A stretch of 48,073 bases of DNA. Source: a bacterium. GTDB lineage: Bacteria; Desulfobacterota; Deferrisomatia; Deferrisomatales; BM512. The DNA lies in contig SCTA01000031.1 in NCBI GenBank assembly GCA_004322275.1, forward strand, positions 1-48,073, read 5' to 3'. Below, piece after piece: positions 14,850 through 42,806 of the stretch. The notes below the pieces were generated by a model that saw only the letters and a program-made list of their open reading frames with translations, did not search any database and was not told the DNA's origin. Position 1 is the first letter of the stretch, and each line of letters opens with the position of its first letter. The translations under genes were made by a program, and so were the position numbers.

Positions 14850-14908
14850 TAATCATCGCGAAAATTTCTCGCTATATCGAAATAGTTCCTTAATCTTCGT
14901 TCTTTCTT

Positions 14909-15002
14909 ACGGCAAAGGATTTTGCCGCCGGGCGAGGAGCCCGCAGGGAGCGCGACGAAGACAGTAGCGTGACTACGGCGAGGAGCGCGACCGAGAAACG
15001 AC
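14909..15002 (+). repeat. 94-bp dispersed repeat, copy A
   Basis: Matches 30329-30422 over 94 bp with 7 mismatches and no gaps by direct comparison. Inside are a small hairpin GGCAAA/TTTGCC and a GTAG/CTAC pair. It lies in the convergent gap between the U32 gene and the oxidoreductase gene at 15032. Confidence 0.85.
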
Positions 15003-15031
15003 GCTGCCCTTCGCCGAAAGAGGAAGCCGGA

Positions 15032-30290: not shown

Positions 30291-30328
30291 CAGTAAAAAA
30301 CAGGCGCTCGACTGTTTTATTTTTACGC

Positions 30329-30422
30329 ACGGCAAAGGATTTTGCCGCCGGGCAAGGAGCCCGTAGCGAGCGCGACGCAGACAGTAGCGTGACTACGGCG
30401 AGGAGCGCGAGCGAGTAGCGAC
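30329..30422 (+). repeat. 94-bp dispersed repeat, copy B
   Basis: Partner of the copy at 14909-15002, same orientation, 7 mismatches over 94 bp. It begins ACGGCAAAGGATTTTGCCG and lies in the convergent gap between the ATPase and CoA-binding genes, directly after the double-hairpin unit. Confidence 0.85.
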
Positions 30423-30459
30423 CAAGCCCCGCGGCAAAAGCCGAAGCCGTTTCCGGCTT

Positions 30460-35345: not shown

Positions 35346-38300
35346 TTGAACTTCCGCGGGTTTGGCTTAAAAGCGTTAGGTGCGCTCGTAGTTGCCGCTG
35401 CGGTCCTCTTCGGAGGACCGCAGACGGCTCCTTGCGCCTCTGCGCCCGCGGGAACGGAGATTATCAACAAGGCCGCGGTCTCTTACAAGGACGCGAACTC
35501 AAACTGGCGTCCCTCCGAGGTAAGCCCCGGCGCGGTCTCTTCGGTAACCTCCCTGCCGGTATTGACCATCGGAATCTCGGTAAGTTCAAACCCCGTCAAC
35601 ATGGGCGAGAACTTCGCCCTCACAATAACGTTTCAAAACGAAGGCAACGACGCCGCCAGGAATTGCTCACTCACCCTCGACCTGAGCGAGTTCCTTATTT
35701 ACCTGGGCAACTCGGGCGGCGGCGTCTACGACCCCTCTATAACCGCCGGAGGCCAGGTATCCTGGGCGCTCGGCGACTTACCGGCCGGTTCCGGGGGCTT
35801 TGTCACCGTGCAGACGAGGGTGAAAACACCCTCCGACTACGCCGCGAGGGCGGCGCTTGACATCTCTTCCCGGTCCCTCATCATCAACACCGCCACGATA
35901 GCGGCGACAAACACCGCCAGAGCCGCAACGGCTTCGACGGTGGCCAAGGTCGGCGTCGGGCCTAATCTCTCCATCACCAAGGAAGTGGACGACGCCACGG
36001 TTGTTCCGGGCGGAACGCTTCTCTACACCCTGCGCTTTGCCAACACCGGCAACGATACCGCCTCAGGCGTAACGGTAACAGACACTTTCCCCGCCGGGAC
36101 TTCCTACCTCTCCGGTTCCGCAACCGGAGCGGGACTCACCGTAAATCCCGGCTCACTCAGCTGGAGAATCGACGAGGTCGCGCCGGGCGAAACGGGTTTG
36201 CTCGTCTTCGCCGTAACGGCCAATGGCGCGGCTGTCGCAGGTTCAAAGATAACCAACGTCGCGACCGCAAGGTCCGACACGACGATCCCGGTAAACTCGA
36301 ATACCGTCGAATCGACCGTGGTCAACCCCCCCGCCTTCACCCTGACCAATACCCCGGAAAGCCCCGCCGTACCGGTAGGCGGGACCATCAGACTCAAAAT
36401 GGAAGTCACGAATTCCGGGGTAGTGCCGACGGGCGATCTGACTCTCACAAGCTCCCTGCCCTCCTTTACCCATTTCGTCTCCGCCGACGGCGAGGCGGTC
36501 TTCGCTCCGGAAGGAGCGGGGGGGAAGCTGGTTTGGGACCTGGGCTCGCTCGATCCCGGCGAAACGGCGGTGCTTAGCGTCGTCCTTCTCCTCGACAGGG
36601 CAACCCCCGCCGGTACCCTCATCGACACCACCGCAACCGTCTCGGGCTCCATGACCGACGAACTTTCCGCAACCGCCAGCGTCACTGCGCTCGCGAGAAC
36701 CGGCGCGGTTCTCACCTTCACCGACACCACCGGCGCTCCGGTGCTCTTTTACGAGATCGGAGACACCGTATGCCTCCGGGTCAGCGACCCTGACCGCAAC
36801 AACTCGCCGCTCGTAAGCGACTCGGTTACCGCTATTCTCGGCTCCGCCTCCTCGGGCGACGTTGAAACTCTTACCCTTATCGAAGAGGGCTTGAACGCAG
36901 GAACCTTTTACGGGTGCATGGACTCCACCGGAATCGCAACGCCTTCCGGCGACGGCGTCTTCACCGCGCCCCGCAACCTCACCTTCACGGCGACCTACAC
37001 AGATCCGCTGGACGACAGCCCGGTCACCGTGGCGACGGTGTGGATAAATCCCAACGGAGTGGTCTTCGACTCCGGCACCCTGAGCCCGGTTGCAGGCGTA
37101 GAGGTTACCCTGCTCGACGCGGACAACCTCCCCGTCGCCGTGCCCGCCGGGTGGCAGAACCCCTTCCTGACGAAGGAAGACGGCGTCTTCTCCTTCCCCG
37201 ACCTGCCCCCCGGAGAGTACCGGGTAGAGGTCGAAGGCGGGCGCAGGTACCAGTTCCCCTCCGCCGTTCCCGAAGGGCTCATGCGAAGCCTCTACAGGGT
37301 AGTCCCGGCCTCGAAGGGAAGGAGTTTCTCCCTTTCGGTGAGAAGCTCGCTGGGCTTCGACATTCCCATCGATCCGGCGAACCCCCCGGATCTCGTCGTC
37401 GAGAAAAAGGCCAACCGCACTTTTGCCTCCATCGGCGACGTAATCAGGTACACGGTCACCGTGGAAAACCTCTCCGGCCTGCCGGTGACGGCCGCGAGCG
37501 TGACCGACGTTCTGCCGAAGGGAATTCATTACAAGAAGGGGACCTCCCGCCTCGACGGGGCCGACGTGGCCGATCCCGCCGCCGACGAGTCGCGCACCCT
37601 TGTCTGGGACCTCGGCGATCTGGCCGTGGATCAGAAAATTACTCTCGACTACGTCACCGTCGCCGGAGCCGGAGCAAAAACCGGCAGGGCGGTTAACAAG
37701 GCGACGGCAGGCGGCACGGTGGGCGGAATTCCCGCCGTCGCCAACACCTCTACCTCGGGAGTAAACATCTCCGAAGGCGTCTTCACATCGAAGGGAACGA
37801 TTATCGGCAAGGTCTTCGAGGACAAAGACTGCGACACGCTTGCCGGCGAAGGCGAACGCGGCTTCGGACAAATCGCCATCTACATGGAGGACGGCCGGAA
37901 GGTCGTCACCGACGAAAACGGCCTCTACTCGATACCCAGAGTAACCGCCGGAACCCACGTCCTCCTGCTGGACAAGACCACCATCCCCGAGGGGTTTTGC
38001 CCGTCCCCGGTCGGCTCAAGATTCATGGGCGACGCCGAATCGCAGTTCGTCGAGATCTTTTACGGCGATCTCGCCAAGGCCAACTTCGGCCTTTACGCCT
38101 GCGAAAAGGAAACCCCGGCGAAGTCCAGTCTCCTCGAAGAGCTGAAAGCCTCGGAACCCTCTGCGGGAAAGACCGAAGCTACGGCGGGCAAAAATGAAAC
38201 CGCAAAGATAGCTTCCCTTCCCGGCGAACTGAAAGGTTCCACGGAGCCTGAAACTCCGAAGGGCGTAAAGGAAGAGGTCAAGGCCGGGGCGGACGAGCCC

Positions 38301-41300
38301 ATTGAAAAACGGGTTGCCGCGATGGAGCGCGGCCTCGAAATCCTCTCCCCGAAAGAGGGCGAGGAGATATTCGGCGGGCAGGTGACGATTCTCGTCAAGG
38401 GCGACTCAAACGCCCCCCTCGTCCTCGCGGTAAACGGCGTGGCGGTGGGGGAATCGCGCATTTCAAAACGAATGAACGTCGAGGCGCGCCGTTTCAGGGT
38501 GCTCGAATACCTGAACGTGCCCCTTTCCGAAGGCAGCGAGAACGTCATCGAGGCCTTTGAAATGCGGCCCACGGGAAAGCCCGGCAACTCACGCAGGATA
38601 ACCGTCAAGGCCATAGGCAAGGCGGCTTCGATACGCATCTCCCTCGACCCCCCGGAGGTTCCGGCCGACGGAAAATCCGAAGTGAAGGCGATCCTCGTCC
38701 TTCTGGACGCTTCCGGCCTTCGGGTTCCCGTAGACACCCACATAACCTTGGAAGCGAGCGCGGGGACGATAGTCGAAGAGGACTCCGACAAAGCAAGCGC
38801 GGGCCATCAGGTGAAATGCACCGGAGGCACAGCCTCCTTCACGATCAGGGCCCCCTCCGCGACCGGCAGGGGAACCGTAACGGCAAGGGCGGGAGACGCA
38901 ACCGGAACCGCCGAAACCTACTTCTCGCCGAACCTTCGCGAGATGCTGATCGTCGGCTACGGCGAGCTTTCCCTGACCCCCGGCGAAAGCAGGGGCGATT
39001 TCGACACCGGCGGCAGAGGGGCCTTCTTCGCGCAAGGCAAGATTCTGGACGACGTTCTGCTCACCGCCTCCTACGATTCGGACAAGGCGGAGGACGGCTT
39101 TTTCTCCACCGGCGGCGAGGGGAAGGACACCGAAGAAGATTACCCGGCCTACGGCGACGAATCGGAGAATTCCAGCGAGGCGAGATCCGCCGGCAAGCTC
39201 TTCGTGAGGCTGGACAAGGGAAAGAACCACGCCCTTTACGGCGACTACGAGACCGCGCTCACACAAAACCGCCTCTCGGCTTATACCCGAACCCTTACGG
39301 GAGCCGAGATCGAGGGGCAAACGGGCAAATTCGGACTCTACGGCTTTTACAGCCTGACAGACAGGACCCAGGCGATCGACAAGATGCGGGCGAAGGGCGT
39401 CTCCGGCTACTACTTCCTCTCGCGCTCGCCCGTCGTAACCGGAAGCGAGCGGGTGGTAATAGAGACAAGAGACCGCGACAGAACCGATTCGGTGTTAAAG
39501 AGCAAAACCCTTACGCGCTTCACCGACTACAGAATCGACTACAACCTCGGCACGATAATGTTCCTGCGGCCGGTGCCCAGCATCGACGCGGATCTCAACC
39601 CGATTTACATAATCGTCACCTACGAGAGCGAGGGCGGACCCAGGGAATTCGCCGTTACCGGCGGCAGGGCTTCCTACTCTCCCTTCGGCTGGCTCGAACT
39701 CGGCCTGACCGCCCTCTCCGAAGAGCAGCAGTTCGAGGATTTCGAGCTTCTCGGGGCGGACCTCACCGTCAAACTCCCCTACGAAACCACCCTGAAGGTC
39801 GAGAGCGCGAAGACCCATTCCGCGCTCGACGACGGGGGCGTCCTCCAGCCCGCGGACGGCTCGGCGCTCGACGTGGAACTGAAATCAAGCCCCTCGCGAA
39901 AGACCGGGGTAACGGCCTACTACCGCGAGATCGGCGAGAAGTTCAACAACCCCTCGGCGACCGGAGTGAGCCGCGGAACGGTCAAATACGGCGTCGATGG
40001 CTCCGTGCAGGCTTCCGAAACGGTTAAGCTCACCGGCGAATACTTCAACGAGGAAGACAACCTCAACGACATGAGCCACTGGGGAGTCTCGGCGGGCGGC
40101 GAAAAGACTTTCGGCCCGGCGAAAGCCGGTATCGAGCTTTCCCACGAGGAATCGGACGACAGGAAGGTCCCCTCGGCAAGCACGAAGACCCGCGAGCCCT
40201 TCGACATAAGCGTCCAGACCCCCGAAGAATCCACCGCAGCCCGCATCTTCGCGGAGACGAGGCTCGGAGAAAACATTTCCGTCAGCGCCTCCCACAAAGA
40301 AGACATAACCTCGAAGAAAAACAACCTCACCGGAGTTGGCGCGGACTACCGCATCGACGACAGCAACCGGCTCTACCTGCGCTCCGAGTATCAGGTGACG
40401 GACAGCGACGACTACGTCCGCACCGTCTTCGGCGCCGAATCGAAGATTACCGAAAACACCGTGGCCTACAACGAAAACAGGATGGAGAACGGCCAGTCCG
40501 CCACGAGAAACGTAGAGGTTCTCGGCCTTCGCAACCGCCTCCTCCTCGCGGAAGGGCTTTCGGGCGATTTCTCGGCCGAGCAGCAGTTTACGGCCACCAG
40601 AGGCGAAGGTTCGGAAGACCCCGACACTCTCGCCCTCACCGCCGCCGTCGAATACGTGCCCAGCGAACGCCAGAGGATAACGGCCCGGAGCGAATTCCTC
40701 ACCCAGACCTCCAGCTCGGGTAAAAATTCCCTCCTTTGCGAACTGGGGATAACGAGAAAGCTCACGAGCGACCTCTCCCTCCTCGCCGACGGCAGGTACT
40801 TTGAAGACTCCACAAGAGAGAGCGATTTTCGGGAAAGAAGAGTGCGGCTCGGGCTCGCCAGAAGGCCGCTTTCCGGCGACCGCCTGAACGGCCTCGCCCG
40901 GATAGAATACCGCCTGGAAACCGGCGACGGCGCAGACAACGATTACGAGGCTGAAAACTACATCGCCAGCCTCGCGGGAAATTATCAGGCGAACGCAAAG
41001 ACTATACTCAGCGCCAAGTGGGCGGGCAAGGCTGTCAGCGACCTTCGTGTGGACACTTATACCGATCTTGTCAGCCTCGGCGTCACCCGCGACCTCGGCG
41101 ACCGCTTCGATCTGGGCGGAAAATACAGAATACTCAGAAGCCCCTCCGTCTCGGCCGTCGAACAGGGCGGACAGGTAGAGGCGGGGTACCGCGTGGACAA
41201 GAACATCTGGCTGACCGCAGGCTGGTCCTTCGACTCCTTCGACAACGACCTCACCGGCGAAAACATCGAACGGGAAGGGGTTTTCCTGAAGCTCCGCGTG

Positions 41301-42020
41301 AAGTGGCCGGTAAGACCGGGATTTGACGCGGGCGAAGAGGCGAAGGTCTGCGGCGGCACGGGCGAGCGGATAACGCTGGTCGCCGCGAACCCGCCGGTGG
41401 AGATCCTCCCGGCAGTCGAAATCACAGCGGCCGTGGAAACCCAGCCGGTTACGATTCTCCCCTCGCCCGAAATCGTCGCGCTGGCTGAAAACCCAGAGGT
41501 GGCGATTTTGCCTTCGCCGGAAATTTCCGCAACCGTCGTAAACCCCCCGGTGGCGATTATGCCCGCGCCAAATATCGTCGTAACCGGAATCAATCCGCCG
41601 CTTACCGTCCTTCCCGCGCCGGAGCCGGTGAGAATAGTGACGGAAGACCCGTACGTCTCCGTGCCCACCTCGTCCATCGAGTTGAAGGTGCATTTCGACA
41701 CCGGCAAGGCGGACATCAAGGACGAGTACCGGCAGGAGATAGCGGCGGTGGCCGAACTTCTCGTCGCTTCCCCCGAGGTCACCGTCCTCATCGAAGGCCA
41801 CACCGACAACGTGGGCAGCGAAAGGTACAACCGGAAGCTCTCCGAGAAGCGCGCCCTGGCCGTCGCAAACCGCCTCATCCAGTGGTACGGGGTAGCGCCG
41901 CAGCGCATCCAGGTCATCGGCTACGGAGAGGCGAGACCCCTTGAGCCGAACGTCACGGATGCCGGGAGGGCCAAAAACCGCCGTATCTACGCGGTGATAC
42001 CGATCGGCTACCGGCCTTGA
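35346..42020 (+). CDS. Giant DUF11-adhesin/outer-membrane-barrel/OmpA fusion protein
   Basis: 2224 residues from a TTG start with a signal peptide (LGALVVAAAVLFGG). In order: Ig/DUF11 domains (about 30-450), the ETLTLIEEGLNAGTFYG domain shared with the 31144 protein (450-560), a carboxypeptidase-regulatory-like domain (570-640) and another DUF11 (680-800). Next come an SdrD B-like domain GTIIGKVFEDKDCDTLAGEGERGF (817-885), a charged linker, and two Big-like domains (995-1195, the second like invasin Big_1). Then a region of alternating polar/aromatic strands of about 800 residues consistent with a large beta-barrel (1200-2010), five 17-residue proline repeats (2015-2099), and an OmpA C-terminal domain (HFDTGKADI, EGHTDNVGS). 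OmpA domains bind peptidoglycan. The protein thus would span from cell wall to outside. Barrel assignment is by eye. Confidence 0.75.
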   Translation: MNFRGFGLKALGALVVAAAVLFGGPQTAPCASAPAGTEIINKAAVSYKDANSNWRPSEVSPGAVSSVTSLPVLTIGISVSSNPVNMGENFALTITFQNEGNDAARNCSLTLDLSEFLIYLGNSGGGVYDPSITAGGQVSWALGDLPAGSGGFVTVQTRVKTPSDYAARAALDISSRSLIINTATIAATNTARAATASTVAKVGVGPNLSITKEVDDATVVPGGTLLYTLRFANTGNDTASGVTVTDTFPAGTSYLSGSATGAGLTVNPGSLSWRIDEVAPGETGLLVFAVTANGAAVAGSKITNVATARSDTTIPVNSNTVESTVVNPPAFTLTNTPESPAVPVGGTIRLKMEVTNSGVVPTGDLTLTSSLPSFTHFVSADGEAVFAPEGAGGKLVWDLGSLDPGETAVLSVVLLLDRATPAGTLIDTTATVSGSMTDELSATASVTALARTGAVLTFTDTTGAPVLFYEIGDTVCLRVSDPDRNNSPLVSDSVTAILGSASSGDVETLTLIEEGLNAGTFYGCMDSTGIATPSGDGVFTAPRNLTFTATYTDPLDDSPVTVATVWINPNGVVFDSGTLSPVAGVEVTLLDADNLPVAVPAGWQNPFLTKEDGVFSFPDLPPGEYRVEVEGGRRYQFPSAVPEGLMRSLYRVVPASKGRSFSLSVRSSLGFDIPIDPANPPDLVVEKKANRTFASIGDVIRYTVTVENLSGLPVTAASVTDVLPKGIHYKKGTSRLDGADVADPAADESRTLVWDLGDLAVDQKITLDYVTVAGAGAKTGRAVNKATAGGTVGGIPAVANTSTSGVNISEGVFTSKGTIIGKVFEDKDCDTLAGEGERGFGQIAIYMEDGRKVVTDENGLYSIPRVTAGTHVLLLDKTTIPEGFCPSPVGSRFMGDAESQFVEIFYGDLAKANFGLYACEKETPAKSSLLEELKASEPSAGKTEATAGKNETAKIASLPGELKGSTEPETPKGVKEEVKAGADEPIEKRVAAMERGLEILSPKEGEEIFGGQVTILVKGDSNAPLVLAVNGVAVGESRISKRMNVEARRFRVLEYLNVPLSEGSENVIEAFEMRPTGKPGNSRRITVKAIGKAASIRISLDPPEVPADGKSEVKAILVLLDASGLRVPVDTHITLEASAGTIVEEDSDKASAGHQVKCTGGTASFTIRAPSATGRGTVTARAGDATGTAETYFSPNLREMLIVGYGELSLTPGESRGDFDTGGRGAFFAQGKILDDVLLTASYDSDKAEDGFFSTGGEGKDTEEDYPAYGDESENSSEARSAGKLFVRLDKGKNHALYGDYETALTQNRLSAYTRTLTGAEIEGQTGKFGLYGFYSLTDRTQAIDKMRAKGVSGYYFLSRSPVVTGSERVVIETRDRDRTDSVLKSKTLTRFTDYRIDYNLGTIMFLRPVPSIDADLNPIYIIVTYESEGGPREFAVTGGRASYSPFGWLELGLTALSEEQQFEDFELLGADLTVKLPYETTLKVESAKTHSALDDGGVLQPADGSALDVELKSSPSRKTGVTAYYREIGEKFNNPSATGVSRGTVKYGVDGSVQASETVKLTGEYFNEEDNLNDMSHWGVSAGGEKTFGPAKAGIELSHEESDDRKVPSASTKTREPFDISVQTPEESTAARIFAETRLGENISVSASHKEDITSKKNNLTGVGADYRIDDSNRLYLRSEYQVTDSDDYVRTVFGAESKITENTVAYNENRMENGQSATRNVEVLGLRNRLLLAEGLSGDFSAEQQFTATRGEGSEDPDTLALTAAVEYVPSERQRITARSEFLTQTSSSGKNSLLCELGITRKLTSDLSLLADGRYFEDSTRESDFRERRVRLGLARRPLSGDRLNGLARIEYRLETGDGADNDYEAENYIASLAGNYQANAKTILSAKWAGKAVSDLRVDTYTDLVSLGVTRDLGDRFDLGGKYRILRSPSVSAVEQGGQVEAGYRVDKNIWLTAGWSFDSFDNDLTGENIEREGVFLKLRVKWPVRPGFDAGEEAKVCGGTGERITLVAANPPVEILPAVEITAAVETQPVTILPSPEIVALAENPEVAILPSPEISATVVNPPVAIMPAPNIVVTGINPPLTVLPAPEPVRIVTEDPYVSVPTSSIELKVHFDTGKADIKDEYRQEIAAVAELLVASPEVTVLIEGHTDNVGSERYNRKLSEKRALAVANRLIQWYGVAPQRIQVIGYGEARPLEPNVTDAGRAKNRRIYAVIPIGYRP
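41388..41642 (+). repeat. Five tandem 51-bp repeats coding 17-residue proline units
   Basis: Residues 2015-2099 of the giant protein are five in-phase units of exactly 17 residues, following NPPV-x-I-L-P-x-P-E-I (for example TQPVTILPSPEIVALAE and NPEVAILPSPEISATVV). The DNA units have diverged, so the array is old. The unit likely forms an extended rod between the barrel and the OmpA domain. Confidence 0.85.
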
Positions 42021-42292: not shown

Positions 42293-42631
42293 ATGGAACG
42301 CTACGGAGTCCTCGTCCTCCTCTTTTTCTCCAACATCTTCATGACCTACGCCTGGTACGGCCACCTAAAGGATTTCAGAAAATCCCCCCTCGTGGCGGTC
42401 ATCCTCCTGAGCTGGGGAGTGGCCTTTTTCGAGTACTGTTTGCAGGTTCCCGCAAACCGGTTCGGCCACTCCTATTACACCGTCGCACAGCTGAAAGTGA
42501 TGCAGGAGGTGATAACGATGGTGGTTTTCGGACTCTTCTCGGTTTTTTATTCAGTGTCCCGTGCGGCTAGTGGCTTCCGGCAATTTGGGCGTCGATTCGC
42601 CCGAGCCGCCAGGAGCGAAGAGCCCGAATAG
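42293..42631 (+). CDS. DUF486 (DMT-type) membrane protein, C-terminus replaced by inserted element
   Basis: 112 residues as read. Residues 1-87 are clear DUF486: LFFSNIFMTYAWYGHLK, SWGVAFFEYCLQVPANRFG and AQLKVMQEVITMVVFGLFSVFYS. In this family the last helix follows as GEPLRWxYLxGF. Here residues 88-112 (VSRAASGFRQFGRRFARAARSEEPE) are basic, unlike the family, and are coded by an inverted-repeat element that begins at 42554. The missing last helix is found just after the element (42717-42806). The family is a small multidrug-type membrane protein of unknown substrate; this copy is probably inactive. Confidence 0.8.
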   Translation: MERYGVLVLLFFSNIFMTYAWYGHLKDFRKSPLVAVILLSWGVAFFEYCLQVPANRFGHSYYTVAQLKVMQEVITMVVFGLFSVFYSVSRAASGFRQFGRRFARAARSEEPE

Positions 42632-42714
42632 CGGGCTCTCTTCGGGCGATAAGCGACGACGCGGGTCGGGATGAAGCGGCGGCCAAATCGGGAGGAACTA
42701 GCCACACGGGACAC
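42554..42714 (+). mobile_element. 161-bp MITE-like element inserted in DUF486 gene
   Basis: Terminal inverted repeats GTGTCCCGTGCGGCTAGT (42554-42571) and ACTAGCCACACGGGACAC (42697-42714) match at 17 of 18 positions. A two-base CA lies on both sides (42552-42553 and 42715-42716), consistent with a target duplication. An internal hairpin AGAGCCCG/CGGGCTCT and no reading frame mark it as non-autonomous. Removing the element and one CA restores the DUF486 frame. Confidence 0.8.
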
Positions 42715-42716
42715 CA

Positions 42717-42806
42717 GGGGAGCAGTAGCGGACGGATTACCTCTGGAGCGGTCTTTGCCTGGTCGCGGCGGCGTATTTTATGTTTCGGGGCGTGGCGGTG
42801 AACTGA
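42717..42806 (+). pseudogene. Detached C-terminal part of the DUF486 gene
   Basis: In the frame continuous with codon TCA 42551-42553, the sequence reads GEQ-stop-RTDYLWSGLCLVAAAYFMFRGVAVN and ends at TGA 42804-42806. This is the last DUF486 helix (family form GEPLRWxYLxGFxLIxxAxxFxF). The in-frame TAG at 42726-42728 stands where the family has PL codons, so mutations followed the insertion. No start codon or ribosome site is seen. Confidence 0.75.

What the first reader, a model, noticed from the sequence alone, without database searches (positions are those of the whole stretch)
42293..42806. DUF486 gene cut by a 161-bp element; frame is restored by in-silico removal
The DUF486 protein matches its family until residue 87. 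Then an element with 17/18 matching ends and CA on both sides begins. After it, in exactly the same frame, lies the missing last helix (RTDYLWSGLCLVAAAYFMFRG). A TAG now stands where the family has PL, so decay followed. The element thus records a dated gene-inactivation event, and its ends and 2-bp CA duplication define a MITE family.
Basis: seen in the sequence. Interest (0 to 1): 0.68.

Follow-up and report, generated by a model that had tools for sequence, protein, structure and literature searches.

The report
Hairpin mini-transposon that broke a gene
A 161-base hairpin-shaped "passenger" transposon of the IS630 type jumped into a small membrane-protein gene and cut off its last helix; it belongs to a large family spread through Geobacter-like bacteria whose hairpin seems to be kept paired at the RNA level.

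Summary
Bases 42554-42714 are a 161-bp element with 17/18 matching ends and CA on both sides. It splits a DUF486 (DMT_6) gene after codon 87. Removing element plus one CA (163 bp) rejoins the frame. The Pfam match then rises from 125.8 to 148.6 bits and covers profile positions 2-104 of 104. A same-genus relative has the gene whole and element-free beside the same OmpA-like gene.

The element is a MITE: 8 complete copies lie in this genome. Its ends and the family's CTAG/TA target tie it to IS630; full 1.15-kb IS630 elements with these ends exist in Desulfuromonadia, but none was found in this genome. Family-wide the duplication is TA (53/75); CA is the exception.

Beyond the finding: 82 of 277 Desulfuromonadia genomes carry the end motif. 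Copies keep a 159-162-bp length and a full-length hairpin through compensatory changes, with an RNA-like preference for G·U over A·C on one strand. Many copies sit exactly in a TAG stop codon, which the insertion regenerates.

The parts
42293..42553 (+). DUF486 / DMT_6 gene, first 87 codons (residue 87 encoded by TCA)
   Evidence: Pfam PF04342, 125.8 bits, profile 2-80/104; 79% identical to the same-genus relative over 86 codons
42552..42553 (.). left copy of the 2-bp target duplication, CA
   Evidence: sequence
42554..42714 (+). 161-bp MITE of IS630 type, near-palindromic
   Evidence: + is the strand that folds best (-102 against -86 kcal/mol)
42554..42579 (+). left terminal inverted repeat (26 nt; the 18-nt tip is shared with the IS630 partner)
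42689..42714 (-). right terminal inverted repeat
42593..42678 (.). 86-bp central hairpin, shared with five other palindromic repeats of this genome that have different ends
42554..42631 (+). element-derived tail of the present ORF (VSRAASGFRQFGRRFARAARSEEPE, stop at 42629-42631)
   Evidence: ORF 42293-42631, 112 aa
42715..42716 (.). right copy of the 2-bp target duplication, CA
   Evidence: sequence
42717..42806 (+). separated 3' end of DUF486 (GEQ*RTDYLWSGLCLVAAAYFMFRGVAVN, own stop TGA 42804-42806)
   Evidence: joined flanks give full Pfam coverage; differences from G001 by codon position over codons 92-112 are 1, 2, 9
42726..42728 (+). TAG stop in the joined frame (codon 91)

Best explanation
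A non-autonomous IS630-type (Tc1/mariner-like) MITE was inserted by an IS630 transposase, acting in trans, into a DUF486 gene. The 2-bp target CA was duplicated. The reading frame now runs into the element and stops after 25 element-encoded residues, so the protein loses its last transmembrane helix. Shown: the insertion anatomy, the empty site in a relative, the multi-copy family, and IS630 elements elsewhere with the same ends. Inferred: that this transposase family moved it, and that the protein lost function. The hairpin interior is most likely maintained because it acts as RNA within neighbouring transcripts; that step is suggested by covariation, not proven.
For: Element and flanks. Frame rejoined and Pfam coverage from 2-80 to 2-104 of 104. 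Same-genus genome G001: whole gene, no element, beside an OmpA-like gene, and no end motif anywhere in that genome. In this genome: 8 complete copies of 119-255 bp plus about 5 stray ends. Family: 75 complete copies, 53 flanked by TA/TA, 37 by CTA|TAG, the target reported for IS630 (Tenzen & Ohtsubo 1991, title cited in PMC2170065). Autonomous partner: 1152-1159-bp elements with these ends and an IS630 transposase, NCBIfam NF033545 at 285 bits against a cut-off of 100.
Against: No IS630 transposase was found in the window's genome or its four nearest relatives. The duplication here is CA, while IS630 elements use TA almost exclusively. The IS and the MITE share only the terminal ~18 bp. No expression or transposition data.
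Confidence: 0.9

Rival explanations
1. The gene was already broken (for example by the TAG at codon 91) and the MITE landed later in a pseudogene.
For: The TAG lies only 4 codons past the insertion; codons 87-93 differ at many positions from G001; G002-G011 have no DUF486 match, so the gene seems dispensable in this family and order.
Against: Both halves still show mostly third-position differences from G001 (13, 13, 48 upstream; 1, 2, 9 downstream), so neither half has decayed for long; this does not settle which event came first.
Confidence: 0.3
2. The 112-aa read-through protein with an element-derived tail is still functional, so this is exaptation rather than inactivation.
For: ORF 42293-42631 is open for 112 codons, close to the original length of about 115; dN over the first 86 codons is low (0.16).
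Against: The tail is arginine-rich and hydrophilic and replaces a transmembrane helix present in every relative examined; the low dN mostly predates the insertion.
Confidence: 0.08
3. The element is a structured RNA gene or attenuator that belongs at this place, not a transposon copy.
For: Very stable hairpin and RNA-like covariation across the family.
Against: Empty site in the relative, 2-bp duplication, IS630 ends, dispersed copies; no Rfam match.
Confidence: 0.03

Closest known systems
IS630 family (Tc1/mariner superfamily) and its MITEs
   Same: TA duplication in CTAG for most copies; terminal repeats shared with elements carrying an IS630 transposase
   Different: This copy is flanked by CA; only about 18 terminal bp are shared, so it is a type II MITE by the definition in PMC10969869
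Nezha, a cyanobacterial MITE
   Same: Small non-autonomous element; to my knowledge also linked to an IS630-type IS
   Different: Sequence not compared; known here only by title in a reference list
Chunjie, MITE of Geobacter uraniireducens (Chen et al. 2008)
   Same: MITE in the same bacterial group, many copies, mostly intergenic (PMC10969869)
   Different: 178-235 bp against 159-162 bp here; its end sequence could not be read (paper not held), so identity is untested
'Multicopy nucleotide sequences' of Geobacter and Pelobacter genomes (PMC2700814, PMC2996986, PMC3543383)
   Same: Dispersed palindromic repeats in the same group; the family may well be listed there
   Different: Alignments are in supplements that could not be opened; the main-text passages read do not link them to IS630
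ERIC and Correia elements
   Same: About 120-200-bp palindromic MITEs spread over related genera; their transcripts can be cut by RNases (PMC10969869)
   Different: No sequence comparison made; different hosts

Membership tests
MITE | under about 500 bp, no transposase gene | tested here: met
   161 bp
MITE | terminal inverted repeats | tested here: met
   17/18 or 26 nt at 85%
MITE | target-site duplication | tested here: met
   CA/CA here; TA/TA in 53 of 75 relatives; the empty site in a relative has a single dinucleotide
MITE | multiple dispersed copies | tested here: met
   8 complete copies in this genome, up to 54 ends in one Desulfuromonadia genome
IS630-derived MITE | ends shared with an autonomous IS630 element | tested here: met
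   L191, L193, L194, L195: 1158-1159 bp with both ends; L190: 1152 bp with more divergent ends; transposase NF033545
IS630-derived MITE | TA target, preferably CTAG | tested here: inconclusive
   met by the family: 53/75 TA/TA, 37/75 CTA|TAG; not met by this copy, which is CA/CA
IS630-derived MITE | autonomous partner in the same genome (usual, not required) | tested here: not met
   no DDE_3 or transposase match in G000; may be lost or unassembled
IS630-derived MITE | mobilised in trans by the transposase | not testable with these tools
   needs an experiment
Chunjie | same end sequence | not testable with these tools
   original paper not held

The most novel reading that the evidence does not exclude
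The family is a long-lived, RNA-selected hairpin carried by IS630 ends across a bacterial class: its 159-162-bp length and full hairpin are kept by compensatory change, G-U pairs are tolerated and A-C oppositions avoided on one strand, and its CTAG specificity lets it sit in TAG stop codons that it rebuilds, so it joins transcripts as a 3' hairpin (and sometimes supplies an AGGA/GGGA ribosome site) without harming the gene.
Probability: 0.35. Interest if true: 0.6.

Novelty: new member of a known kind. Interest (0 to 1): 0.4.

Why it matters
The insertion itself is a clean textbook case of gene loss by a MITE. The family matters more: MITEs are usually described as decaying leftovers, yet this one keeps length and pairing across many genera with a strand-specific, RNA-like signature. 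That makes a testable case for a transposon passenger that is selected as RNA. Its stop-codon-rebuilding target site would help explain how such elements reach high copy number with little damage.

Tried and rejected
Rfam search of eight loci: no match. Search for the partner transposase in the window's genome by family and by protein: none. Larger pairs of end motifs (L085 1864 bp, L093 3078 bp, L164 767 bp) were checked as autonomous elements; no transposase was recognised in them and they look like chance pairings around unrelated genes. Literature search for the end sequence: no paper. The first parsimony count of G-U against A-C used an alphabetical tie rule that favours G-U; redone with random ties, the result is unchanged. 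Pairs taken only from the fold of the opposite strand do not show the G-U excess (GU 42, AC 118 cells), as expected since that fold selects for A-C columns; pairs on which both folds agree do (GU 38, AC 8). Orientation of the RNA strand relative to the gene whose stop it uses: 21 against 17, no bias.

Full report
WHAT IS THERE. Bases 42554-42714 form a 161-bp near-palindrome, GTGTCCCGTGCGGCTAGT...ACTAGCCACACGGGACAC, flanked by CA on both sides. The ends agree at 17 of 18 positions. As a single strand it folds at -102 kcal/mol against -64 for shuffles, z -9.65.

THE GENE. The ORF 42293-42631 matches Pfam DMT_6/DUF486 up to profile position 80 of 104. It then runs into the element and stops after 25 further residues. 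Joining the flanks with a single CA restores the frame and gives 148.6 bits over profile positions 2-104 of 104, with one TAG at codon 91. The same-genus genome G001 has the gene whole, next to an OmpA-like gene as here, with no element; at the aligned position it reads TAC CTA AAG where this genome reads TAT TCA GGG. Of the 11 other genomes of the same order that were searched only G001 carries the gene, and 7 more in the phylum do, so its presence is patchy.

TIMING. Downstream codons 92-112 differ from G001 at 1, 2 and 9 first, second and third positions, and the upstream part at 13, 13 and 48. Both halves were therefore under constraint for most of the time since the split, and the break is younger than that split. 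No date can be given. The TAG could have come before or after the insertion; 'decay followed' is an inference.

THE ELEMENT FAMILY IN THIS GENOME. Complete copies: C31 (this one, 161 bp), C8 161, C24 162 and 255, C18 253, C7 252, C32 252, C22 119, plus stray ends on C2, C3, C7, C14 and C21. Flanks are CA/CA (C31, C24a), TA/TA (C24b, C7), and mixed TA, CA or TG in the rest. No copy was found in G001-G004 by similarity or by end motif.

THE FAMILY ELSEWHERE. A scan of genome contigs with the end motif stopped at its limit with 118 stretches, nearly all Desulfuromonadales: Geobacter, Geotalea, Oryzomonas, Desulfuromonas, Geoalkalibacter. From them 75 complete copies of 150-170 bp were cut out; most are 159-162 bp. 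Flanks are TA/TA in 53 and CTA|TAG in 37. In the class of Pelovirga (the class Desulfuromonadia to my knowledge), 82 of 277 genomes have the motif, up to 54 ends in one; the reversed-pattern control gives only single hits in about a dozen genomes. The window's element is about 47% identical to these overall, yet its interior aligns far above shuffled versions in the given orientation (z about 11 against mononucleotide shuffles). It is most likely a diverged branch of the same element.

THE MOVER. Contig ends in Pelovirga start with the same 18 bp and run into what looks like a transposase N-terminus. Searching the class with that piece gave elements with the same ends: 1158-1159 bp in L191, L193, L194 and L195, and 1152 bp in L190. 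The L190 transposase matches NCBIfam IS630 (285 bits, cut-off 100) and Pfam DDE_3. IS630 elements duplicate TA, and IS630 itself prefers CTAG (PMC2170065 and the 1991 title it cites). In vitro ISY100, of the same family, made 34 of 39 insertions with normal TA duplication and 2 into AA/TT, so rare non-TA duplications such as CA are credible.

THE HAIRPIN IS KEPT. On 29 copies less than 90% identical, the consensus hairpin pairs in 95.5% of cells. Shuffled partners give 88.4%, slid partners 35-43%. Eighteen of 42 pairs have double changes, and 86 cells are compensatory against 27 expected from shuffles. Seventy-three of 74 copies fold better on the same strand, on average -85.8 against -71.8 kcal/mol, and the window's three short copies do too; these copies are related, so they are not independent tests. 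By parsimony with random ties, Watson-Crick pairs changed to G-U 63 times and to A-C 25 times, while unpaired columns show no such skew (60 against 64; Fisher p about 0.001). Mutation alone treats the two outcomes alike, so this points to constraint on one RNA strand. Caveat: pair columns were partly chosen by folding the given strand; pairs chosen by both strands' folds still show the skew (38 against 8 cells), those from the opposite strand's fold do not.

STOP CODONS. Because TA is followed by the element's first G, an insertion into CTAG rebuilds TAG. In 35 of 75 copies this junction TAG ends an ORF of at least 100 codons, against 29 of 103 element-free CTAG sites in the same loci (odds ratio 2.2, p 0.012). 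In nine copies an ATG ORF begins 3-11 bp outside the element, where the terminal AGGAC or GGGAC could act as a ribosome site; the enrichment is weak (11 ATGs in the first 12 nt against about 5.5 per later 12-nt bin). ORFs here are mechanical calls, not curated genes.

VERDICT. The finding is real and its core reading is right; family, target and timing needed correction. It is an ordinary kind of event by a member of a known kind of element, inside a family that looks more interesting than the event.

Noticed in passing
L004-L008 (G000 C19, C1, C3, C8, C32), e.g. L006:1465-1627: Five palindromic repeats of about 163 bp in this genome share the element's 86-bp central hairpin (89-91% in four, 79% in the fifth) but carry different ends (GCGTTACCATCGGCC...), and lie within larger repeats of 700-800 bp. 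The hairpin looks like a module that changes its ends.
   Followed up: partly
L002:1458-1734 and L003 (reverse complement) 1458-1758: Copies C8 and C24a sit at the same position in homologous flanks, but the element is in opposite orientation in the two, suggesting inversion through its ends or two independent hits on one site.
   Followed up: partly
L053 (C22) and L016 (C24b): An ffh-like gene (signal recognition particle protein) and an M16-peptidase-like gene, named by eye, start 3-5 bp outside a copy's end, so the element end would be their ribosome-binding site.
   Followed up: partly
L135:6799-6832, L186:7288-7321: Bare end-to-end palindromes of 34 bp (GTGTCCTGTGCGGTTAGT..CACCGCACAGGACAC) flanked by CTA/TAG: minimal two-end elements with no interior.
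   Followed up: no
window 14900-15029 and 30320-30449: A 130-bp direct repeat, 85% identical, 15.4 kb apart.
   Followed up: no
window 35346-42020: 2224-aa repeat protein with an OmpA-like C-terminus directly upstream of DUF486; an OmpA-like gene also lies beside DUF486 in G001.
   Followed up: no
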